Origin: Ashinkailepas kermadecensis
Lineage: Eukaryota; Arthropoda; Thecostraca; Neolepadidae
Direction: 5' to 3'
Assembly (NCBI GenBank): GCA_034440615.1
Contig: JAOTOM010005108.1
Location: forward strand, 372,001 to 436,000
DNA: 64,000 bases
The notes under the pieces were generated by a model. That model searched no databases. It worked only from the letters and a program-made list of their open reading frames with translations, and was not told the DNA's origin. The position numbers and the translations under genes are program-made. Below are positions 1,351-62,530 of this stretch, one piece after another (positions within the stretch are counted from its first letter, which is position 1; every line of letters starts with the position of its first letter).

Positions 1351-1437
1351 CATGTGGTAGGGTACTTAGTTGGTTATTTGGGCTTACGGGCGCATCGACT
1401 GCGTTGGCCATACAGCGCCCATGTGGTAGGGTACTTA
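1351..1437 (-). mobile_element. Miniature retroposon copy 1 with 18-bp target duplication
   Basis: A 51-bp insert (1369-1419) is flanked by two identical 18-bp direct repeats, CATGTGGTAGGGTACTTA at 1351-1368 and 1420-1437. Read on the minus strand, the insert starts with GGCGCTGTATGGCC, contains GCGCCCGTAAGCCC and ends in AAATAACCAAC. Related inserts with their own target duplications lie near 51.3, 58.4 and 62.4 kb. Duplication length points to target-primed reverse transcription. The insert codes for nothing. Confidence 0.85.
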
Positions 1438-1529
1438 AAACGGTAGTACATGGCAAGGGGCCCGTCTCCCAACCGAAAGGGTTTCGGTTTGAGACCTACC
1501 TGTTGCTACTCTTCGCCCCCGAGCTATCC

Positions 1530-2025
1530 GCGTGAGCGATTGGCCACGCTATACCCTTGGCCCGCGAGCTATCGAAGTGAGGGATTGGCCACGCTATACC
1601 CTTCGCCCGCGAGCTATCGAAGTGAGGGATTGGCCACGCTATACCCTTCGCCCGCGAGCTATCGAAGTGAGGGATTGGCCACGCTATACCCTTCGCCCGC
1701 GAGCTATCGAAGTGAGGGATTGGCCACGCTATACCCTTCGCCCGCGAGCTATCGAAGTGAGGGATTGGCCACCCTATACCCTTCGCCCGCGAGCTATCGA
1801 AGTGAGGGATTGGCCACGCTATACCCTTCGCCCGCGAGCTATCGAAGTGAGGGATTGGCCACGCTATACCCTTCGCCCGCACTATCGAAGAGGCTATACC
1901 CTTCGCCCGCGAGCTATCGAAGTGAGGGATTGGCCACGCTATACCCTTCGCCCGCGAGCTATCGAAGTGAGGGATTGGCCACGCTATACACTTCGCCCGC
2001 GAGCAATGGAGGCGTGAGGGATTGG
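1530..2025. repeat. 45-bp minisatellite, about 11 copies
   Basis: Near-perfect tandem copies of a 45-bp unit; successive GTGAGGGATTGG starts at 1622 and 1667 are exactly 45 bp apart. One copy near 1875-1905 carries an internal deletion, and the last copies are degenerate. Because 45 is a multiple of three, frames of 161-205 codons stay open on both strands (15-residue periodicity). There is no other sign of coding. Confidence 0.95.
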
Positions 2026-2413
2026 CGACGTCATACTCGTATGACACAACATGTCGGCACGCCGTAAAACCAATAATCACCGCAGAGCGCAGACAGCAGG
2101 TCTGCTCCGCTGCCCTGAGGTGGGGAAGCTGCGAATGCAGACGATGGCAGTCGTCATTGTTTGTGATCGGTGCGACACTTGACCAGCACCGGCACTGGCC
2201 GGCCGTCTGGTAGCTGGCGCTGGAGACTGGCGGCTGAGCCGGATGACTCGGACATGCTTTTGAAGATTACAGACGGTAGTAAATCAACAACACATTGCCG
2301 GATCACATAAATATGCGGATTAAGATGTCCTTAGTGCATGATGTGGATACGCTGGGAACCTACTTTAGCAGCAGCAGTGCACTGCACCTGACAAAGGCTA
2401 GTGGCTAGGGCTA

Positions 2414-30347: not shown

Positions 30348-30359
30348 CACTCACAGACA

Positions 30360-33300
30360 ATGAATACAATACTACAATGGAACACACACGGACTCATTAG
30401 ACACTGGCCAGAATTCAAACACTACGCACTACAGACAAACCACATTGCACTATGCATACAAGAAACACACTTCAAACCCAACGATCCCTATCAATTCAAT
30501 ATCCCTCACTACACACTATACAGACAAGACACACACACCACACACAGGTCAGGCGGTGTCTGCGCCTACATTAGGAACACAACACCGCACTGTCTGATAC
30601 ACTTTAACACCACATCAAACATACTACTCACCGAAATACACCTCCACAACACAGCCTGCACACTCATCAACATCTACGACCCCCCCCCATCAGGAAACAC
30701 AGAAACTCTTTCGGAATTAAATAAAGCACTTGACCAAATTGCCACTCCAGTCATAATAGCTGGAGATTTTAACTCTCATCACCCACTATGGGACACACGA
30801 ACAACACGACCCGACCACAAAGCACACCTTCTCATCACTCTAGCAACCCAACACAACCTCACAGTACTCAACACCGGATCACCAACATACCTCGTCCCAA
30901 TTAGATCCCACCTCCCCACGACCCCAGACGTAACCCTGGCATCCTCACGCATAGCCCTCACCCTATCCTGGACATCCGATTCCGATCCTCATTTCAGTGA
31001 CCACGCGCCCATAACCATTACCTTTAACCAAATCCCGACCACCGGCCCACCCAATCCACCCACGAGCAGGTGGAACCTCAAAAAAGCATCCTGGACACCC
31101 TTTACAGAATCCATAGCCGCACAAACAGCACACAACCCACACCTCACACCAGAGCAATTCGCACACATCCTCCTCACTACAGCACACCAACACATACCAC
31201 AAACAAAAATACGCCATCAACACAAACCTAGCGCGGCGCCCTGGTGGAACGACGAATGCCACCGGGCGATCCGCGCGAGGAATCACGCACGGCACAGACG
31301 CGAAAGACACCGCACACCGGAAACACTCACAGTATACAAACAACTCAGAGCAGCCTGCAAAAGAACCATTAAAAATGCCAAAAAGACCTCCTGGAATAAA
31401 TTTTGCAATCAATTTAACAGATTCACCCCTCTCGGCGAAATTTGGACACTTCTTGGAACATTTCAACATCGACAAAGACCACAAACTAAAGCCATCACAC
31501 TCATACACAACAACATCACCATCACAGACCCACAAACAATAGCAAACATTTTCGCACACAACTATCACATTAGGTCATCCACACTTCCACGACACCCCGC
31601 ACCTCTAATCAGACACACACGCCCTGATCTTTACAACACTAGGTTTACACTCACAGAATTACAAATAGCAATCGCACAAACAGGAAACACAAGCGTATGA
31701 CCAGACAATATACACTATTCATTCTTCAAACACCTTCCAACACAAGCACTACACGCATTGCTCGACACCTACAACACCGCATGAACAACGCATACATATC
31801 CACAATCTTGGCTAGACGCTTTGCTCATTCCTATCCCTAAACCAAACACTGATTCAACTCTATGCGACTCCTACCGTCCTATCGCACTAACCAGCTGTTT
31901 TCACAAACTCTTCGAACGCCTTGTCAAAAAACGCCTTCTCTACATTATTCAAACTCAAAAACTAATATCTCCTATTCAATCAGGCTTTCTCCCTAACCGC
32001 TCATGTATTGACAGCCTCATCTATCTCATCACTCACATCCAGGAAGCGGCGGCAAAGAAACGCGCCACCGTCGCCGCCTTCCTGGATCTCAAACAAGCCT
32101 ATGACACTATCAACATAGCAACACTTTTACAACACCTATACAACTTAGACATACAGGGAAGACTACTACACTACCTTCACTTCTACCTACTAAAACGATC
32201 ATTTCAAGCAAAAATTGGGCCCCATACTTCAGACATAAAATTCCCCAGAACCGGCTTAATGCAAGGTTCGGTTTTAAGCCCCCTTCTCTTTATTCTAGGC
32301 CTAAATTCAATCATCACTGACAATTTCTCGACCAAAATCGCAATTTACGCAGATAACATTGTACTCTGGACATCACATGAAACACCAAATAACGCATTAG
32401 GAACACTACAAAACGCACTATCAGAACTACACAACAAACTAGCCTTACTTAACTTACACATTGCACCACACAAATCGAAATGCATGGTATTCGGCTACAC
32501 CCGACATACAAACTTACAACCACTAAAAATATACCACACATCCATACCTTTTGTAACCACAACAAAATTATTAGGTATCACACTAGACCCACGACCCACC
32601 TTTCGGCCCCACATTCTAAATATTCAAAAACGCGCCTCAAAAATAATACATCTATTACGAGCACTTTCTGGCACACACTGGGGATCAGACCGAAATATAC
32701 TACTGACATTATACAAAGCAATCATTCGCCCACTCATGGAATACGGATCCCCACTCTTTGAAAACGCAGCCAAATCAAATCTCCACATTCTAGACACACT
32801 ACAACACCAATGCCTAAAAATAGCTACCGGAGCCTACATCACTACACCATATCTCGCACTTCACATATACAACCATATACCAGAACTCAAACACAGACGC
32901 ACAGAAGCACTACTTAGATACCATTACAAAACACAACTCGTCAAACAACACCCATGCACTCAAGCACTCAAAATTCGCACCAAACGCATGCACCAACTTA
33001 TGAAAAAAAACACCACTTAAAACCACAATAGGCTGTCGCATACACCAACACGCAAATAGATTACAAATCACACTCCCCACAACACAACCACTCCCACCAC
33101 CCACAGCATGGTGGAAACACCAAACACCCACAACACATTTCCTCATAGACAAACCGAAACACGCATACACAGACGCAGAAATACAACAACTCTTCCTACA
33201 ATTCACAGCACAATACGCAAACTATAATGTCATATACACAGACGGATCCAAAACACACACAGCAGACGGGCTCAGCGGCGGTGCTGTATCCCAATACAGC

Positions 33301-39000: not shown

Positions 39001-39808
39001 TATGGCACACCATAAGGTCAACAAAGGATGCCCCACTAACTACACCATAAGGTCGACAAGGGATGCCCCACCAGCTACATCATAAAGTCGACAAGGGATG
39101 CTCCACCAGCTACACCATAAGGTCAACAAAGGATGCCCCACCACCAGCTACACCAGGTGGCGGCGCGCTCGTCTGCGCCGTTTTTTTTTCTCGTGGAATA
39201 CACAAATTCGGCACCATATATCTCACATCGCCTTTCCGTTCCACATCATGGAGAAAAGCTTGGCTGGCGGGGGGCAAAATACCACTGATTTGAACACCGG
39301 CAGCTCCTTTTGATCAGCACGTTTCTTCCAGGTGGTAATCGCCTGCATGGTGGCGCTCGCAACCGCTCGACCGCAAGGCCAAGAGGTGTACGTGGACGTT
39401 GATGACTCGCAGGCGTACGTTGCCGAGGGAAGCACCCTCAGGGACGCCGGAATCATCCGCATGGAGTCCGTCCAAAACGAGGACGGCTCCTTCCGATACG
39501 GATTCGAAACGACCGATCCGATCCAGCAGGACGTCTCCGGCCAGATCAAGCAGATCGGCGAGGAGTTCGGCATCGTGATGCAGGGCTCCTACAGCTTCGA
39601 GACGCCCGAGGGCCAGACGATCACCATCACGTGGACAGCCGATGAGAACGGCTTCCAGGCGCAGGGAGACGCCATTCCGCAGGACGCCAACTCGGCTGCA
39701 CAGAGCGCGGCGTACGCGGCGGCGGGTCAACAGCAAACCTTTGTTCAACAGGACGCCTTTCAGCAGGATTTCGGGCAGGTGTTTGATCAGGGTGACTTCA
39801 TTGAATAG
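36045..39808 (+). CDS. RR-1 cuticle protein 4 (two exons, 3.3-kb intron)
   Basis: Exon 1 is ATG AAA CTG (36045-36053) with a GTAAGT donor. Exon 2 is 39332-39808 after TTTCTTCCAG. Phase 0 joining gives 161 residues. Residues 1-15 are a signal peptide, followed by RPQ as in the tandem trio. The RR-1 chitin-binding domain is at about 52-119 (GSFRYGFE, GSYSFETPEGQTITI, TADENGFQAQGDAIP). The tail (120-161) is Ala/Gln-rich. The secreted product is expected in the cuticle. It is clearly diverged from copies A-C, so it is an older paralogue. The 3278-bp intron is unusually long for this type and contains a 35-bp repeat and a hAT-like terminus. Using only exon 2 would miss the start, since it opens with GTG, not ATG. 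Confidence 0.88.
39008..39152. repeat. 35-bp tandem repeat in the intron of cuticle gene 4
   Basis: Four imperfect copies of about 35 bp with core CACCATAAGGTCGACAAGG and GATGCCCCACCAGCTA, ending 180 bp before the exon 2 acceptor. Confidence 0.85.
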
Positions 39809-47879: not shown

Positions 47880-49490
47880 TCATCACAAGCATCACAAGTA
47901 GTCACTACTACTTCGCCATATCTCTAAAGACGTAAACTATGCTAAGCTCTAAAGATCCCTCGACGACTTATGGTGGGAGATCACAGTTCCTTCCATCGCC
48001 TCCCACTCCCCCAATGCTTGTGAGGATAAAATTGTTCAAGCGAGGGTTTCTTTGCAGCATTCTTTATGTGATAGTATGTGTGTGCCACGTCACGGGCCCA
48101 CGTCAAGGGCGTTCCGCCGAACAATCAACTGATGTGAGACGTTTTGGTGGTCAGCACGTAGTTTGTGCCAAACATGGCTATATCTGTGCTTGTCATACTT
48201 TCAACCACGCCCTCGGCGAGATTAGCCACAGATGCACCACCAGTGCCGAGACTTGCGCTACGAGCGCGGCAGTTTCTTCAGGACGTGGTAAGCTGCGCGG
48301 ACGGACCCTGGCGACACGGTGTTGGGAGTCAACTCGCTAATGTGCAGGCGAGACGCAGCTGCCAGTGCAATGCCGACGACGCTCTAGGTCGGCGACTCCT
48401 GGATGGCGCGCAGGTCACCGACTATGCGGATGTCGTCAATCTTGTAGGATCACTTCTTGTTATTGCTGTACTTTGGAGCAGCCGAGCGAATCCATGCTCA
48501 TAGTCTGGTTCTTGCAGTGCGGAGTCAGTATCAACGTGAAGGAAGTTAAATTATTCTAAATTCAACTTAAAAGTGAAAGCATTCAATAATTTGGGTCTTA
48601 TGCTTGAATTCAATCAACTCAAGTACTAGAAATTCGTGCCTCAAAATTACAAACAGACTTATTTTCCATCCCCAAATGCTTCAACTACGCACAATGACAC
48701 CACCAATATTGCGGACGTTTTGTTTCACCTCACTGGCAGTGGCCAGGGTCAATCGGACATCTCATGACAATATCATCAGATCAGAAGTCGTCAAGTGGTC
48801 CCGGGTACGGATCCCACCGGCGGACTAGCTTCTGCTTTCTCCGGGCTCAATGCGGGCAGCCCGCATGGTCCCTAGCCGTTCGGTGAACATTTCGCTAATG
48901 AGTAGAGGGGCGGTCCCGATGCGGTCTGCGAGCACGGGAGCCGTAGTCTAGTTCAGGAGGGGCTTCCATTAGCTCCGCACGGTGCTGCTTGCTGTGTACC
49001 TGCCTGCGTGCACGCATGATGAAGGTGGCCACGGTAGTCGGCCACTGTTAATTCTGCAACTTCATTTCAAGAGTGTCACGCGGGCGTAGGTGTTCGACAT
49101 TGTGAAGTTTGGCGGTAAGTGTACGCCGGCCGAAACCGCCTCCACCTATCTCTGAAAGTTTCCATGCCACTATCCATTGCTGCTGAGGTGTTCACGAGGG
49201 ACGATCTGACACATGGCTTTTGGCGGTACGAGCGGCGCTGGGAGTGACAGCATTCCAGCATACTGTGAGCTAAATTCACTTCAACAAACAGAAGCAGATC
49301 TCAATGTCAATATCAAACAGTTCTTGGTACCGAAAACATTGCACTGTACTGGAATGGGTGCAAAGTGACATTTGCAGTCGACGCGCCCCTAAATACCAGT
49401 CCACCACCACCACCACTGTACTGGACATGGGCGTGAACACCGAGGTTGGAGGGGGCAGATGCATGGGTCAAGACCACTGATTGCTCTGCT
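47880..49490. other. Unassigned stretch with possible tRNA-type SINE fragment
   Basis: No protein gene recognised. At about 48797-48826, GTCCCGGGTACGGATCCCACCGGCGG resembles the B box and T-stem side of tRNA-derived SINEs (consensus GGTTCGAATCC). No convincing A box was found upstream, so it is a fragment at best. Confidence 0.3.
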
Positions 49491-49545
49491 GTTGTTTGAG
49501 GTTTAGGGCTCTTGGACTAGGGATTGTGATCATTTGGCGCCCATA
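49491..49545 (-). mobile_element. Miniature retroposon relative, no clear target duplication
   Basis: On the minus strand it reads ATGGGCGCCAAATGATCACA, then GAGCCCTAAACCTCAAACAA. This matches the core of the four other insertions but is more diverged. I could not find flanking direct repeats, so it is old or was truncated otherwise. Confidence 0.5.
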
Positions 49546-50770
49546 GCTCATTCCTGATCAGTTGGCAGGAGAGAACATAACCCCACCCCACCCCCGGGTG
49601 CCACGGGTGCCTACTGCCATAGGATCAATTGACAGGAGAGAACATAACCAGGCGAAAGCCACAAGGGGAACTCTCTTTTGTTTTTCTCCTGCCTAGCTAA
49701 TGCCGCGAATGAAATACGTCAGCCCGTACATATTCGTCCGCAGCGAAGTTGCCAATAGTAACTCACATTTCTTGCGTCATAAAGTTCTACTGCTCTGATT
49801 AACATATTGATGTTACTACTACTGATCATGTGCGCCACAATCATGACCTAGGATCTTCCATGAAACTAGGGAGGTACGTCCAATCTCGACCCACCTGGAA
49901 TATCCAGCCATGTCTAGAATGAACCCTTCTCAGAGCCTGGGCTAAGCTCGGTCATCAGAGGGCTGAACTCATTGAGTGTCTGGTGCACTTTGGACCGGTT
50001 ATCTGTTAAATGTCGCGGAATTGACTAGGAGCGAGACCTCGACTTCCATTGAATTTGGTCATTGAACTGTCACTGATGACGGATGTCACTCACCCTTCCT
50101 GTTTAATCCCTCCGGAGTCGTCCTTTGACCGCGCACATTCCCTCCTGTCCCTCTTGCGCACTTGTCCCTCCCTCCGGCTTCCTTTGATGACTGGTGGGGA
50201 GCGGGGAGCGGTTGGCGAATGGAGCATGCCTCGGTAAATCTGACCCGCTAGCGGCGGTCAGCACGCTGACAATGTCTCCGCGTATAACCGGAGGCTGGCC
50301 GCATGCCGTTGCTGCGATTGGAACGCATTAGTGATAGGTCGAGGAGAGCGGGTTAATTGTAACAATTTCTACATTCTTCCAGAGGAAAATTAAGTTGTCA
50401 CTAATACCGCCAAGCAAAAATAAATATATTGGGCTCCATTGAGAAAACATAGTGGTCTAACCCGGACTTGTTAAGAAAAATGGAGGAAGGTGGGACCATT
50501 CCAAAACGCTTGCCCTTCGCCTGACCCTAACCATCTGGCATTATAGCATCATTATCATAATCACGTCGCCGTCGACCCAACATGGTCCCTTGATCCAGGG
50601 GAGTAGGATCGTAAGATCAGTAGGGGGACTCAGCCCTGGGTCGATCAACCTAGGTTACCCCCAAATACCAATGTCTGGCCGGATTGCGCTACTTTATTTT
50701 GCCATCTACGAAAAAAACATTAATTTGTAACTGTTGCGAATGTACATGGAGCATTTTACTTTCCTGAAAA
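49546..50770. other. Unassigned stretch
   Basis: A short motif GACAGGAGAGAACATAACC-like occurs twice (about 49565 and 49631). No gene or known element is recognised. Confidence 0.35.
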
Positions 50771-51321: not shown

Positions 51322-51418
51322 GGAAGTAAGGTGGTTGATTTATTGATTAATTGATTATTTGGGTTTAATGACGCGCCGACTACAAGACCATTTAGCGCCC
51401 ATTGAGGAAGTAAGGTGG
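51322..51418 (-). mobile_element. Miniature retroposon copy 2 with 13-bp target duplication
   Basis: A 71-bp insert (51335-51405) lies between two GGAAGTAAGGTGG repeats (51322-51334 and 51406-51418). On the minus strand it starts TCAATGGGCGCTAAATGG, has GTAGTCGGCGCG and CCCAAATAATCAA, and ends in an ATCA/AATC-like tail about 26 bases long. It is the copy with the longest 3' tail and would be the youngest or best preserved. Confidence 0.85.
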
Positions 51419-52392: not shown

Positions 52393-52422
52393 GACATTGC
52401 ACACGCCGAGGCCTTGTCTTTT

Positions 52423-54270
52423 ATGAAGAACAAGGAAGATGTGGAATTCTTGCAGCGTCAACGAGAGGCCGGCCGCCCCGGGAGCATGTTGGGGATGGAC
52501 AAAAAGTTGGTAAAGCAGGAGGAGAGGAAGCCGAAGAGGGACAAGGCGGAAGTGGCCCGCCGAGACAAGGAGCGTACAAGGAAGGAAGCTGCAAGAGAAG
52601 CCACGGTGGAACTCTCGGACGATGATGATGGTGCTGAAGACCAACCTGAGCTGTCATCAGCTGTTCTGGAGGAATCTCCTGCCAAGCGAGCTCGCGGCCG
52701 GGTCTCTGCCATCACTACTGCTCTCTGTGGTGCCCTCGATCGAACCAAGACTACGGACCGGGCGGCGGTTCATATCTTGGCTGCTGCTGCTTCAGCCTAC
52801 GACCAAGACCCAGCTGAGATGGCCCTGAACCGACAGAGCATCAGGAGAGCCCGTATTAAAGCCAGAGCTATCGCCGCCTCGACCTCTCGCGCCACCCTGC
52901 CCGAGGGCGTTATCCTGACCGTCCCCTGGGACGGGAAGATGGTCGCTGATGGACCTGGGCAGGAACTGGCAGAGCGATTTCCAATTTTGGTGTCCGGCGA
53001 AGGAGTGTCGAAGCTCCTGAATGCTCCCAAGCTCCCAACTAGCACGGGAGCAGCCATAGCGGATGCCGTATTCGGCACACTTCAGGACTGGGGACTCGCC
53101 GACCGTGTTGTTGGAATGGCTTTTGACACCACGGCCTCCAACACTGGACAACTGTCAGGGGCTTGTCTTCTTCTTCAGCAGAAGTTGGAGAAGCACCTCC
53201 TTCACTTCGCCTGTCGCCATCACATCCTGGAGCTCGTGGTTAAAAAGGTCTTCGGCCTCTGCACCTCCCTTATTACGTCTGGACCCGACATTCAACTGTT
53301 CAAGCGTTTCAAAGAAAAATGGGGCGCCATCGACACTGCCAGGTTCCAGACTCTGCTTGACGATCCTGCCGATCCGCCTCAATCGTTCGCTCAAGTGAGG
53401 GACTTCGCCTTGCAGCAGCTGAGCGTTCATCATCCACGCCACGACTATCGCGAGCTCCTGGAACTCACCGTCATTGTTCTGGGGGGAGTTCCGCAGAGGG
53501 GGATATGCTTTGCCAGGCCTCATCACCTTGCTCGATGGATGGCGAAGATCATCTACTCAATCAAGATCTTCCTCTTTCGCGAACAATTCCAGATTCGTCA
53601 ACAGAATATCCAAGGCCTGAGGCGCTTCGTCACCTTCTGCGTGACACTCTACGTGCCGATGTGGTTCCGAGCTCCCGTGGCTTCAACCGCCACTGCCCTG
53701 GACCTGCAGTTTCTACAAGACATCTCTGCTTATCCGGACTCCGAAGTTGCCATCACCGCTACGACGGCTTTCGGACGACACCTCTGGTACCTCTCCGAGC
53801 AGTTGGTCGGCCTTGCCTTCTTCGACGACCATGTCGACGTCGACACAAAGAGAAAGATGTTGGGCGCCCTGTCCAAGGAGGGGTCGGAGGACCCTCCAAA
53901 GCGCGTGACGATGGACCTCAGTCCCAATACCACCAAGCAAAAACATCTCTGGGACTTCGTCACGAGCACCACCCGCCACACTGTGTCAGCGCTCCGAACC
54001 AACGACGGTTTCCTGGACGCCGACCCCCAGACATGGAATGGCCGAGAAGACTTCCAGAAGGCCAAGTCAACTGTCGCTGAATTGAAGGTCACCAACGACT
54101 TCGCCGAGAGAGGAGTAGCCATCATGCAAGACTACCTTCCCCACCTGACACGCGACGAAGAGCAGCGCCAGTTCTCTTTCAGTCCGTCGAAGCCCACCGC
54201 CAGACATTCCCGGATTCCAAAAAGAAAACCGTTGTTGGCGGCCTACCTATTAAGAACTAGGCAACAATGA
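52423..54270 (+). CDS. Transposase-like (RNase H-like fold) protein, intact 615-codon ORF
   Basis: The first in-frame ATG is 52423; the frame is open back to 52393, so an upstream exon is possible. Residues 1-100 are highly charged (Lys/Arg/Glu, then an acidic DDDD patch), perhaps nuclear. The core has VVGMAFDTTASNTG (Asp235) and then FACRHH (Cys264 to His267), like the D and CxxH motifs of hAT-type RNase H-like transposases. Near the end TNDFAERGV gives Asp559 and Glu562, a candidate final acid. I know this pattern as a multi-copy uncharacterised family in arthropods and cnidarians; I cannot name it. The ORF is much more GC-rich than its flanks and unbroken, so it is either a recent insertion or under constraint. 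No terminal repeats were found. Confidence 0.7.
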   Translation: MKNKEDVEFLQRQREAGRPGSMLGMDKKLVKQEERKPKRDKAEVARRDKERTRKEAAREATVELSDDDDGAEDQPELSSAVLEESPAKRARGRVSAITTALCGALDRTKTTDRAAVHILAAAASAYDQDPAEMALNRQSIRRARIKARAIAASTSRATLPEGVILTVPWDGKMVADGPGQELAERFPILVSGEGVSKLLNAPKLPTSTGAAIADAVFGTLQDWGLADRVVGMAFDTTASNTGQLSGACLLLQQKLEKHLLHFACRHHILELVVKKVFGLCTSLITSGPDIQLFKRFKEKWGAIDTARFQTLLDDPADPPQSFAQVRDFALQQLSVHHPRHDYRELLELTVIVLGGVPQRGICFARPHHLARWMAKIIYSIKIFLFREQFQIRQQNIQGLRRFVTFCVTLYVPMWFRAPVASTATALDLQFLQDISAYPDSEVAITATTAFGRHLWYLSEQLVGLAFFDDHVDVDTKRKMLGALSKEGSEDPPKRVTMDLSPNTTKQKHLWDFVTSTTRHTVSALRTNDGFLDADPQTWNGREDFQKAKSTVAELKVTNDFAERGVAIMQDYLPHLTRDEEQRQFSFSPSKPTARHSRIPKRKPLLAAYLLRTRQQ

Positions 54271-58340: not shown

Positions 58341-58421
58341 ACATAGTTTTAATTTTGGGCGCTGTATGACCAATGCAGTTGATGCACCCGTAAGCCAAAA
58401 TAACCAACATAGTTTTAATTT
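58341..58421 (+). mobile_element. Miniature retroposon copy 3 with 15-bp target duplication
   Basis: A 51-bp insert (58356-58406) lies between two ACATAGTTTTAATTT repeats (58341-58355 and 58407-58421). It starts TGGGCGCTGTATGACC, has GATGCACCCGTAAGCC and ends AAAATAACCA. It is nearly the same as copy 1 in length and boundaries but in the opposite orientation. Confidence 0.85.
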
Positions 58422-60799: not shown

Positions 60800-62128
60800 A
60801 TGGCGAGCGTGTTTGAAGAGCTATCTGCTGATCAGACGGAAGCAGCTACAACTGTTGTCGAGAGTCTTTGCATGAATTGCCACAAAAATGGCACTACTCG
60901 AATGCTGCTTACCAAGATCCCATTCTACAAAGAGGTAATACTGATGTCTTTTGAGTGTCCTGATTGTGGATTTAAGAACAGCGAAATCGCATCTGGACAA
61001 GAAATTCAGAAGAAGGGAATTAAGTTGACACTGGAACTGAAGTCGGCTGCGGACTTTAATCGGACCGTGGTGAAGTCAGAGCACGCCGCCATCGCGATCC
61101 CCGAGCTGGAGCTGGAAATACCGGCCACGGCTAAACGGGCAGAGGTGACCACCGTTGAGAGTGTCCTCAGCACCACCGTCTCCGACCTGGAGTCAGACCA
61201 GGCGGTCCGTCGAATCGTCGACGCCGACGCGGCCGCCAAGATCGACGCGTTTCTGGACCGTGTGCGCGACGTGCTGGCGTGCCGCACGCCCGCGCGGCTG
61301 GTGCTGGACGACCCCAGTGGCAACAGCTACATCGAGAACCGGCTGGCGCCAGCGGCCGATCCACAGCTGCGCACAGTTGCCTACAGCCGCAGCCGCAGCC
61401 AGGACAAACAGCTGGGGCTGGCTCCCACACACGACCAGTACGACTTCACCGATGGCTCCCTGCCACAGGAGCCCGATCGGGTCAACCCGGACACGGTCAC
61501 CGCCGAGAGCCTCAAGAACGAAGTGCTGACGTTTCCTACCAACTGTCCGTCGTGTGGTGCGGCGTGCCAGACAAACATGAAGCTGACGGACATTCCGCAT
61601 TTCAAGCAGGTGGTGATCATGGCGACCAACTGCGACGGCTGCGGGGCGCGCACCAACGAGGTGAAGTCGGGCGCCGGGATCGAGCCGCTCGGCCGCCGCA
61701 TGACGCTCAGCATCGGCGACCCCCTCGACATGCAGCGCGACGTGCTCAAGTCGGAGACGTGCTCGGTGGAGGTGCCCGAGCTGGAGGTCGTCGCCGGCGC
61801 ACAATGCTTGGGCGGCCGCTTCACCACCGTCGAGGGACTGCTGGAGAACATCAAGGACGGTCTGCAGAACAACCCGCTGCTGGGAGGCGACAGCAGCTCG
61901 ACCGACATCAGCCGCAAGGTGGCCGAGCTCTGCGCCAAGATCGACCAGGTGATTGGCTGTCGCATACCGGCCACGCTGATCCTGGACGACCCGGCCGGTA
62001 ACAGCCACGTGCAGAGCCTCGCCGGCCCGCAGCCCGACCACAGCCTGACCACTGCACAATACCAACGGACGTTCGAACAGAACGACGAGCTCGGTATCAA
62101 TGATATGAAGGTGGATAATTACTCATGA
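60800..62128 (+). CDS. ZPR1: ZPR1 zinc-finger protein, uninterrupted
   Basis: The ATG at 60800 (CCGTGATGG) gives 442 residues; the GTG one codon earlier is not the start. The protein has the duplicated ZPR1 layout. Zinc finger 1 is C24-x2-C27 and C53-x2-C56 (CMNC, CPDC); the first homology domain runs to about residue 190. Zinc finger 2 is C249-x2-C252 and C278-x2-C281 (CPSC, CDGC), followed by the second homology domain. Both fingers have the same 25-residue spacing, and LVLDDPSGNS and LILDDPAGNS mark the matching ends of the two halves. ZPR1 is a conserved eukaryotic protein that acts with eEF1A as a folding factor and also works in the nucleus. Codon use is GC-rich against AT-rich flanks. 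The coding region has no intron; a TTATTTCAG just upstream might end a 5' UTR intron. Confidence 0.95.
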   Translation: MASVFEELSADQTEAATTVVESLCMNCHKNGTTRMLLTKIPFYKEVILMSFECPDCGFKNSEIASGQEIQKKGIKLTLELKSAADFNRTVVKSEHAAIAIPELELEIPATAKRAEVTTVESVLSTTVSDLESDQAVRRIVDADAAAKIDAFLDRVRDVLACRTPARLVLDDPSGNSYIENRLAPAADPQLRTVAYSRSRSQDKQLGLAPTHDQYDFTDGSLPQEPDRVNPDTVTAESLKNEVLTFPTNCPSCGAACQTNMKLTDIPHFKQVVIMATNCDGCGARTNEVKSGAGIEPLGRRMTLSIGDPLDMQRDVLKSETCSVEVPELEVVAGAQCLGGRFTTVEGLLENIKDGLQNNPLLGGDSSSTDISRKVAELCAKIDQVIGCRIPATLILDDPAGNSHVQSLAGPQPDHSLTTAQYQRTFEQNDELGINDMKVDNYS

Positions 62129-62530
62129 CCTCGACGGGCCGGAACTGGGAATCTTTCGGCCTATGATCCAGTGGTGTGATCACCTCATCCCGCGATGCTG
62201 AAACTGATGGCAGATAAGCGTGACTAGTGCGCTGCATGTGTGAACTGTTAATGACCGCTGGCGTTACGTCATGGGCATCAAGCTCATTTGGAAAATGTCG
62301 CACATCCTTCGTGCATACTAGATGATGCTCTTGAGCAAAACGGATTGATGGATTGAAGAAGTTTGCAAAATCGTCGATGGCACCATATCGTCTTTACGTT
62401 TTTGAAACCGTGTGATTTGGGTTTTAGGGCACACCGACCATGGTAGATCATTTAGCACGTTTTTGAAACCAAATCACAGCGAAGTTACTTCAGAACTTCC
62501 GAATCTTACTTCAAGGCATATTTGAATAAA
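62129..62530 (+). other. Likely ZPR1 3' UTR with AATAAA
   Basis: The first AATAAA after the stop is at 62525-62530, about 400 bp downstream. If this is the used signal, the miniature retroposon at 62410-62456 lies within the 3' UTR. Confidence 0.45.
62396..62470 (-). mobile_element. Miniature retroposon copy 4 with 14-bp target duplication
   Basis: A 47-bp insert (62410-62456) lies between two ACGTTTTTGAAACC repeats (62396-62409 and 62457-62470). On the minus strand it starts GCTAAATGATCTACCATGG, has GGTGTGCCCTAAAACCC and ends AAATCACAC. It is the shortest and most diverged of the four copies with target duplications. Confidence 0.8.

What the first reader, a model, noticed from the sequence alone, without database searches (positions are those of the whole stretch)
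1351..1437. A family of ~50-bp retroposons with perfect target duplications
Four inserts of only 47-71 bp, at 1369-1419, 51335-51405, 58356-58406 and 62410-62456, share one core. Each is flanked by a different perfect direct repeat of 18, 13, 15 and 14 bp. A fifth relative at 49491-49545 lacks a visible duplication. Long, variable target duplications are the mark of target-primed reverse transcription. All copies start within a few bases of the same point (GGGCGCT), unlike ordinary LINE copies, which truncate at random. They may be full-length miniature elements or LINE copies that always stop at one hairpin.
Basis: partly seen in the sequence, partly recalled or inferred. Interest (0 to 1): 0.8.

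Follow-up and report, generated by a model that had tools for sequence, protein, structure and literature searches.

The report
Fifty-base copies of LINE tails
In this barnacle-like genome, jumping genes of the LINE type have left many copies that hold only their last fifty or so bases, a small RNA hairpin and its tail, usually cut off at the same point, which suggests that the hairpin alone is often what gets copied into new places.

Summary
All four inserts have the stated perfect target duplications (18, 13, 15, 14 bp); a sixth copy (49355-49393, 12-bp duplication) was missed. The genome is 907.7 Mb; nearest ZPR1 hits are barnacles. In 200 kb fetched blind, 9 copies with duplications are 47-64 bp, very roughly 40,000 per genome. 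They are not an independent family: they are the 3' terminal hairpin plus simple tail of LINEs with APE endonuclease, reverse transcriptase and RNase H; 7 of 7 LINE 3' ends fetched for this carry the hairpin. Of 60 copies with one identical hairpin, 41 are hairpin-only, 15 continue into LINE sequence, 1 stops at -31, 3 are unclear; 39 of the 41 start within -7..+4. Uniform truncation would not give this peak. The hairpin is copied whole, so it did not block the enzyme. A tRNA-derived SINE with the same kind of hairpin keeps its head in 13 of 14 cases by score, the other unclear. Best reading: the LINE enzyme often reverse-transcribes a ~50-nt hairpin RNA left from the LINE transcript; enzyme release just past the hairpin is the main rival. 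The mechanism is inferred, not shown.

The parts
1351..1437 (-). Insert A (1369-1419) with its 18-bp target duplications (1351-1368, 1420-1437)
51322..51418 (-). Insert B (51335-51405) with 13-bp duplications; AATC-like tail
58341..58421 (+). Insert C (58356-58406) with 15-bp duplications
62396..62470 (-). Insert D (62410-62456) with 14-bp duplications, about 280 bp downstream of the end of the ZPR1 frame (62128); begins 5 bases inside the profile
49491..49545 (-). Copy E, no clear duplication
49342..49425 (+).
1457..2079 (+). Related SINE: head match 1457-1542, 45-bp tandem array 1507-2030, weak SINE-type tail match 2026-2079 (E 0.0025)

Best explanation
The inserts are hairpin-only retrocopies of a group of LINEs (APE endonuclease + reverse transcriptase + RNase H). 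The LINE RNA ends in ...GUUAUGGGCGC-loop-GCGCCC, a short linker and a short-repeat tail. Shown from sequence: the copies are the 3' end of these LINEs, inserted with 8-18 bp target duplications, and most are cut off within about 12 bases at the 5' foot of the hairpin. Inferred: the LINE protein binds this hairpin as its initiation signal, and often primes on a short RNA of about 50 nt that consists of hairpin and tail only (a 3' fragment of the LINE transcript, cut or trimmed at the GUUA at the foot of the hairpin and protected by the hairpin or by bound protein). Reverse transcription then runs to the true 5' end of that RNA, which gives the uniform start; now and then it switches to a second hairpin RNA, which gives the partial dimers.
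For: Sharp, bimodal lengths: in the window plus 200 kb fetched blind, 14 copies (9 outside the window) with duplications at the core are 47-71 bp, against 3 longer relatives; 0 of 300 mispaired flanks reached the score used. Of 60 S1 copies (of 556 exact in the genome, reversed control 0) 41 are hairpin-only, 15 share 65 bp or more upstream, 1 stops at -31, 3 unclear; 14 of the 15 show the end of a LINE-like frame, the fifteenth is too short to tell (read by eye). Parent LINE: the L026 insert of about 370 bp with a 14-bp duplication encodes an ORF2 C-terminus and ends in the hairpin; L113 has a 1237-aa open frame with endonuclease, RT and RNase H; 7 of 7 LINE 3' ends chosen to span subfamilies (L113-L119) carry GTTATGGGCGC + hairpin. 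The hairpin is copied whole. SINE-type hairpins keep the SINE head in 13 of 14 cases by score; the other, L024:5075, has by eye a tRNA-like stretch upstream. Partial dimers L087, L129, L105. Hairpin pairs covary.
Against: No RNA data: a 50-nt RNA has not been seen. In S2 long copies are at least as common as hairpin-only ones (9 of 17 long). A smaller start class at -6 (4 of 41) and the scatter of a few bases fit a ragged end but also a ragged stop. In folds of six long S1 copies the UUA just before the hairpin is predicted largely paired in five (with the UAA of the linker in the drawn folds of two), so the supposed cut site is not plainly single-stranded; in one (L065) the predicted fold breaks up the hairpin. 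The SINE contrast may reflect a different partner LINE, since the SINE hairpin differs in sequence. Single copies fold no better than shuffles (z -1.06 to 0.00, 5 copies). In one search the number of pairs changed on both sides (4) does not exceed shuffles (3.9), and much of the double change separates SINE tails from the rest; nine of the 37 tails, D among them, were left out of that alignment. The S1 pattern demands an intact hairpin and an A before it, so starts inside the hairpin are under-counted.
Confidence: 0.46

Rival explanations
1. Abortive target-primed reverse transcription on full-length LINE RNA: the enzyme is held by the hairpin, copies tail and hairpin, loses its grip once the hairpin is melted, and falls off just past it; repair joins the short cDNA.
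For: Same sharp 5' edge at the hairpin foot; seen in more than one LINE subfamily; stringent-type LINEs are known to be bound at their 3' stem-loop (PMC4176376, abstract and introduction read). In the three partial dimers the target end shares, by eye, 2-5 bases with the hairpin, as expected if a released cDNA end is joined by microhomology.
Against: SINE RNAs with a homologous hairpin and a similar tail show no clear case of such a stop (13 of 14 keep the head, 1 unclear; Fisher p 4.8e-6 on 14:3 against 0:13, run before L024:5075 was looked at). Switching to a second hairpin RNA is more usual at a template end (recalled).
Confidence: 0.3
2. An independent miniature element (about 52 bp) with its own source genes, mobilised in trans by the LINE like a headless SINE.
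For: Discrete length, high copy number, 556 copies with an identical 35-base hairpin in S1, of which 41 of the 60 looked at are hairpin-only.
Against: The first tail base is C/T/G in both LINEs (6/4/1 of 11) and minis (8/15/3 of 26): no mini-specific variant in this sample, more than one source. S1 and S2 each have LINEs and minis. 50 bp leave little room for an internal pol III promoter; none was tested for beyond ARAGORN on the window (0 tRNA genes).
Confidence: 0.12
3. Ordinary LINE 5' truncation, with the peak an artefact of searching with a 50-bp core or of chance direct repeats.
For: Short LINE copies are common in general (recalled). Longer copies do exist (15 of 60; 9 of 17 in S2).
Against: The searches did not limit extension upstream. 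39 of 41 starts lie in a 12-base interval (one read by eye) and one classified copy of the 60 (L069) ends between -15 and -65; with truncation uniform over 4.2 kb, 26 of 40 in a 9-base interval has p about 9e-60. Mispaired flanks reached the duplication score in 2 of 400 trials.
Confidence: 0.05

Closest known systems
Stringent-type LINEs and their SINE partners (UnaL2, ZfL2; 3'UTR requirement of R2 and SART1), PMC4176376 (abstract and introduction read)
   Same: A 3' tail with a stem-loop shared by LINE and SINE and used as the recognition signal; target-primed insertion.
   Different: The parts read describe no population of stem-loop-only copies. Here the LINE protein has an RNase H domain, and the recognised end alone makes up 41 of 60 S1 copies.
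LINEs of the I superfamily (APE endonuclease, RT, RNase H; clade name recalled, not tested by a tree)
   Same: Domains in one frame and a C-terminal CPRC...HHIL..C motif.
   Different: The terminal hairpin with the GTTATGGGCGC entry, and the hairpin-only copies; no I-superfamily reference sequence was compared here.
5'-truncated LINE copies (general, recalled)
   Same: 3' end kept, 5' end lost, target duplications.
   Different: A preferred end point at about 50 bp instead of a spread only.

Membership tests
Non-LTR (TPRT) retrocopy | Variable-length target site duplications | tested here: met
   8-18 bp (some with mismatches) in 41 of 60 S1 copies; 14 copies in window plus sample
Non-LTR (TPRT) retrocopy | Constant 3' end with simple tail | tested here: met
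   Linker and CCAA-, AATC- or CA-like tails
3' end of an APE-type LINE | Continuous with LINE ORF2 in longer copies | tested here: met
   L026 and L113-L119; frame ends in 14 of 15 long S1 copies
Stringent-type LINE tail | Conserved 3' stem-loop shared with a SINE | tested here: met
   Alignment A1 covers LINE, mini and SINE tails; 88.7% of cells paired, 0 of 500 shuffles as high, but pairs changed on both sides not above shuffles
Stringent-type LINE tail | LINE protein requires and binds the stem-loop | not testable with these tools
   Needs binding or retrotransposition assays
SINE | Own pol III head (tRNA, 7SL or 5S) | tested here: not met
   The insert between the duplications holds hairpin and tail only
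I-superfamily LINE | EN + RT + RNase H in one ORF | tested here: met
   Pfam hits on L113
I-superfamily LINE | Placement on an RT tree | not tested
   No reference RT set with clade labels at hand; the hits listed carry no clade names
MITE | Terminal inverted repeats with fixed short duplication | tested here: not met
   Hairpin arms are followed by a linker and tail; duplications vary 8-18 bp

The most novel reading that the evidence does not exclude
A LINE group whose replication signal has, in effect, become a mobile unit of its own: host or LINE processing of the transcript continually makes a ~50-nt hairpin RNA, protected by the LINE protein, and this fragment is a main template of target-primed reverse transcription, so that the genome fills with footprints of the initiation complex rather than with LINEs.
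Probability: 0.35. Interest if true: 0.78.

Novelty: new variant of a known kind. Interest (0 to 1): 0.6.

Why it matters
These copies give a natural record, tens of thousands strong by rough extrapolation from 200 kb, of where LINE reverse transcription begins and ends when only the recognised 3' hairpin is used. That makes a hard question testable: whether stringent LINEs need more than the 3' stem-loop as template, and how template ends are joined to the target. They also matter for annotation: the Pollicipes genome paper states that no comprehensive repeat library was available for barnacles (PMC8917513, passages read), and 50-bp inserts are easily missed.

Tried and rejected
Rejected or weakened: Rfam family (0 matches over the window at gathering scores); tRNA or tmRNA in the window; independent miniature family; chance direct repeats; the window's own EN/RT LINE at 30348-33020 as the parent: no hairpin match in the 420 bases after the coding ends shown for window:34888, L028:4080 and L019:1219, though I did not establish which of these belongs to that LINE or where its 3' end is.

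Led nowhere: hairpin patterns in viral contigs (0 matches) and genome contigs (1 match, an Anaerolineae MAG, probably chance; L140 not analysed); LINE ORF2 in viral contigs (0 relatives); nine paper searches were answered, and none of the titles and abstract starts listed speaks of hairpin-only LINE copies (listings only, some capped); the letter search found one Deinococcus paper. Not obtained: genome-wide counts of SINE-type hairpins with and without head, and of a third LINE subfamily (genome search did not complete).

Rows dropped: of the 50 hits were set aside by a script rule (8 in the L015 tandem array, 8 SINE tails). Of the other 34: 14 minis; 2 more SINE tails that slipped through because of head variants (L020:3079, L020:7338, scores 2 and -1); L025:8703 (score 11, in a tandem repeat, not counted); 4 rows of longer or composite copies (L026:8773, L009:9389, L009:3487, L009:3567); 13 unresolved, E among them. 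Alignment A1 holds 28 of the 37 sequences; I left out nine, mostly partial or low-scoring, D among them. The 39 loci that came (L002-L008, L029-L060) are not in the counts, because that query carried flanking bases of copy A. In one search I read L128 by eye as start 0 (14-bp duplication) instead of the -14 printed; I counted L098 as a mini by eye.

Full report
What was checked. A profile of the five copies finds one more, F at 49355-49393, with a 12-bp repeat. At 2000 random places outside tandem arrays 6 showed an exact repeat of 12 bp or more at such spacing; at 1500 places anywhere, tandem arrays included, 124 did.

Where it lies. The window is G000:C4611:372001-436000 of a 907,663,968-base genome in 4689 contigs. 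The ZPR1 protein at 60800-62128 is 73% identical to Pollicipes pollicipes and 71% to Amphibalanus amphitrite, the next hits near 51%, so the host is probably a barnacle or a close relative.

Blind sample. I took 20 stretches of 10 kb at regular steps from one large contig (the contig was known from the hit list) and added the window, which is of course not blind: 264 kb. The profile gave 50 hits at E < 0.3. Counting copies whose duplication abuts the core with a score of 10 or more (0 of 300 mispaired flanks reached it) and leaving out one in a tandem repeat, 14 remain: A, B, C, D and F of the window and nine in the 200 kb. Their inserts are 47-71 bp (47-64 for the nine). Nine in 200 kb would scale to about 41,000 in the genome; one contig is a narrow base for that. 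Three relatives are longer: L026:8773 (14-bp duplication 315 bp upstream of the core), L009:9389 (LINE coding sequence just upstream) and L009:3567-3439, a composite of two hairpins inside an 11-bp repeat. Of the 34 rows scored, 13 stay unresolved.

The parent. The L026 insert reads as the C-terminal end of a LINE protein (..CPRCNSPLTVHHILTCQHY..), a stop codon, a short 3'UTR and then the hairpin and tail. L063 adds an RNase-H-like stretch. A protein search of the genome reports 151 matches (150 of 18,551 candidates scored), several in open frames of 1237-1250 aa. L113 has a 1237-aa frame with Exo_endo_phos, RVT_1 and RNase_H domains. I chose seven LINE copies from that list to span 53-89% identity and fetched their 3' ends; all seven carry GTTATGGGCGC plus the hairpin, at profile E-values of 2.8e-9 or better. 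So the core is the 3' terminus of this LINE group.

Length distribution at fixed sequence. The 35-base S1 hairpin occurs 556 times exactly, and 0 times reversed. I fetched 60 of the first 65 listed places; the other five had come in before, and all five were hairpin-only with a duplication (L003, L007, L039, L040, L049). Of the 60: 41 hairpin-only with a duplication, 15 with 65 bp or more of shared sequence upstream, 1 cut at -31 (L069), 3 unclear (L081, L120, L122). Fourteen of the 15 long copies show by eye a frame ending such as ..FRFLSDVKFRAIYTPH-stop, like the LINE ends in L113-L116; L131 is cut short by its contig. Starts: 39 of 41 in -7..+4, with L128 read by eye; the two others, L087 and L129, carry a partial second hairpin. 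Mispaired flanks reached the threshold in 2 of 400 trials. For subfamily S2, 17 exact copies exist; 8 of these coincide with long copies, and of the other 9 one is long (L110) and eight share no upstream sequence. By eye L104, L109, L111 and L112 have clean duplications, L105 a partial dimer, and L106-L108 are unclear. So long copies are at least half of S2: the share of minis varies.

Hairpin. On 28 aligned tails of LINE, hairpin-only and SINE copies (A1; nine of the 37 left out) the two-helix structure pairs in 88.7% of cells (shuffles 84.0, 0 of 500 as high; slid versions 32-45%), with covariation score 0.316 against 0.224. Double changes: G-C to C-G and G-C to A-U in SINE tails, G-C to A-U in the inner helix of five others. 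Against it: the count of pairs changed on both sides (4) does not exceed shuffles (3.9), and five single copies fold no better than shuffled sequence. Six long S1 copies folded with 150 bases of upstream sequence show no shared helix further upstream, but the UUA just before the hairpin is predicted largely paired in five, and in L065 the predicted fold breaks up the hairpin. The hairpin foot may therefore include UUA/UAA.

The SINE. Fourteen SINE-type hairpins score below E 1e-3 in the 264 kb. Thirteen have the head of a ~160-bp tRNA-like SINE (TGGTCTAGGGGTAAG and GGTTCGAGTCT; the reading as boxes A and B is recalled). The fourteenth, L024:5075, lacks that head; by eye a tRNA-like stretch precedes it. 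Weaker matches: window:2026 and L015:1690 have the head, L028:5776 is unclear. In five of the thirteen the duplication lies 108-113 bp upstream of the core. Hairpin-only copies thus seem to be a property of the LINE-type hairpins, although the SINE may depend on another LINE.

How it works. A reverse transcriptase coming from the tail would be stopped at the 3' side of a blocking hairpin; here the whole hairpin is copied and the copy ends at its 5' foot, next to GTTA. Either the template RNA ends there, or the enzyme lets go there. I prefer the first because SINE templates are not seen cut short, because three copies (L087, L129, L105) carry a partial second hairpin 5' of the first, as after a template switch, and because S1 minis carry the same C/T/G variants as S1 LINEs, which speaks against one mini source gene. 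The step that makes the short RNA is inferred. In the partial dimers the target end shares a few bases with the hairpin (by eye), which suits joining by microhomology and does not decide between the two readings.

What is known. Stringent-type LINEs are recognised through a 3' stem-loop tail shared with SINEs (PMC4176376; abstract and introduction read). The nine answered paper searches named under Tried and rejected listed no report of hairpin-only LINE copies; only listings were seen. The P. pollicipes genome paper (PMC8917513; passages read) says no comprehensive repeat library was available for barnacles.

Verdict. A real, abundant and sharply bounded class of LINE-derived retrocopies; a new variant of a known kind. 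Mechanism open, with two testable readings.

Noticed in passing
3711-24195: Stretches repeated two or three times at about 8.5- and 9.2-kb spacing, most of them 85-100% alike, one pair 70%: a tandem segmental duplication.
   Followed up: no
1457-2079: tRNA-like SINE whose body holds a 45-bp tandem array.
   Followed up: partly
30348-33020: Another LINE with endonuclease and RT frames.
   Followed up: partly
L015:4860-5460: A tandem array with an 82-bp unit that contains a version of the tail sequence: a tail that became a tandem repeat.
   Followed up: no
L009:3567-3439: Composite insert with two different hairpin cores inside one 11-bp duplication.
   Followed up: partly
52393-54270: 625-aa open frame that looks like a transposase by eye; not searched.
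   Followed up: no
39314-39808: Frame resembling an arthropod cuticle protein by eye; not searched.
   Followed up: no
49553-49650: Imperfect direct repeat of about 28 bp (GATCA.TTG.CAGGAGAGAACATAACC) beside copy E.
   Followed up: no
L122: S1 copy preceded by stretches that read like the tail sequence in reverse complement, perhaps an inverted copy.
   Followed up: no
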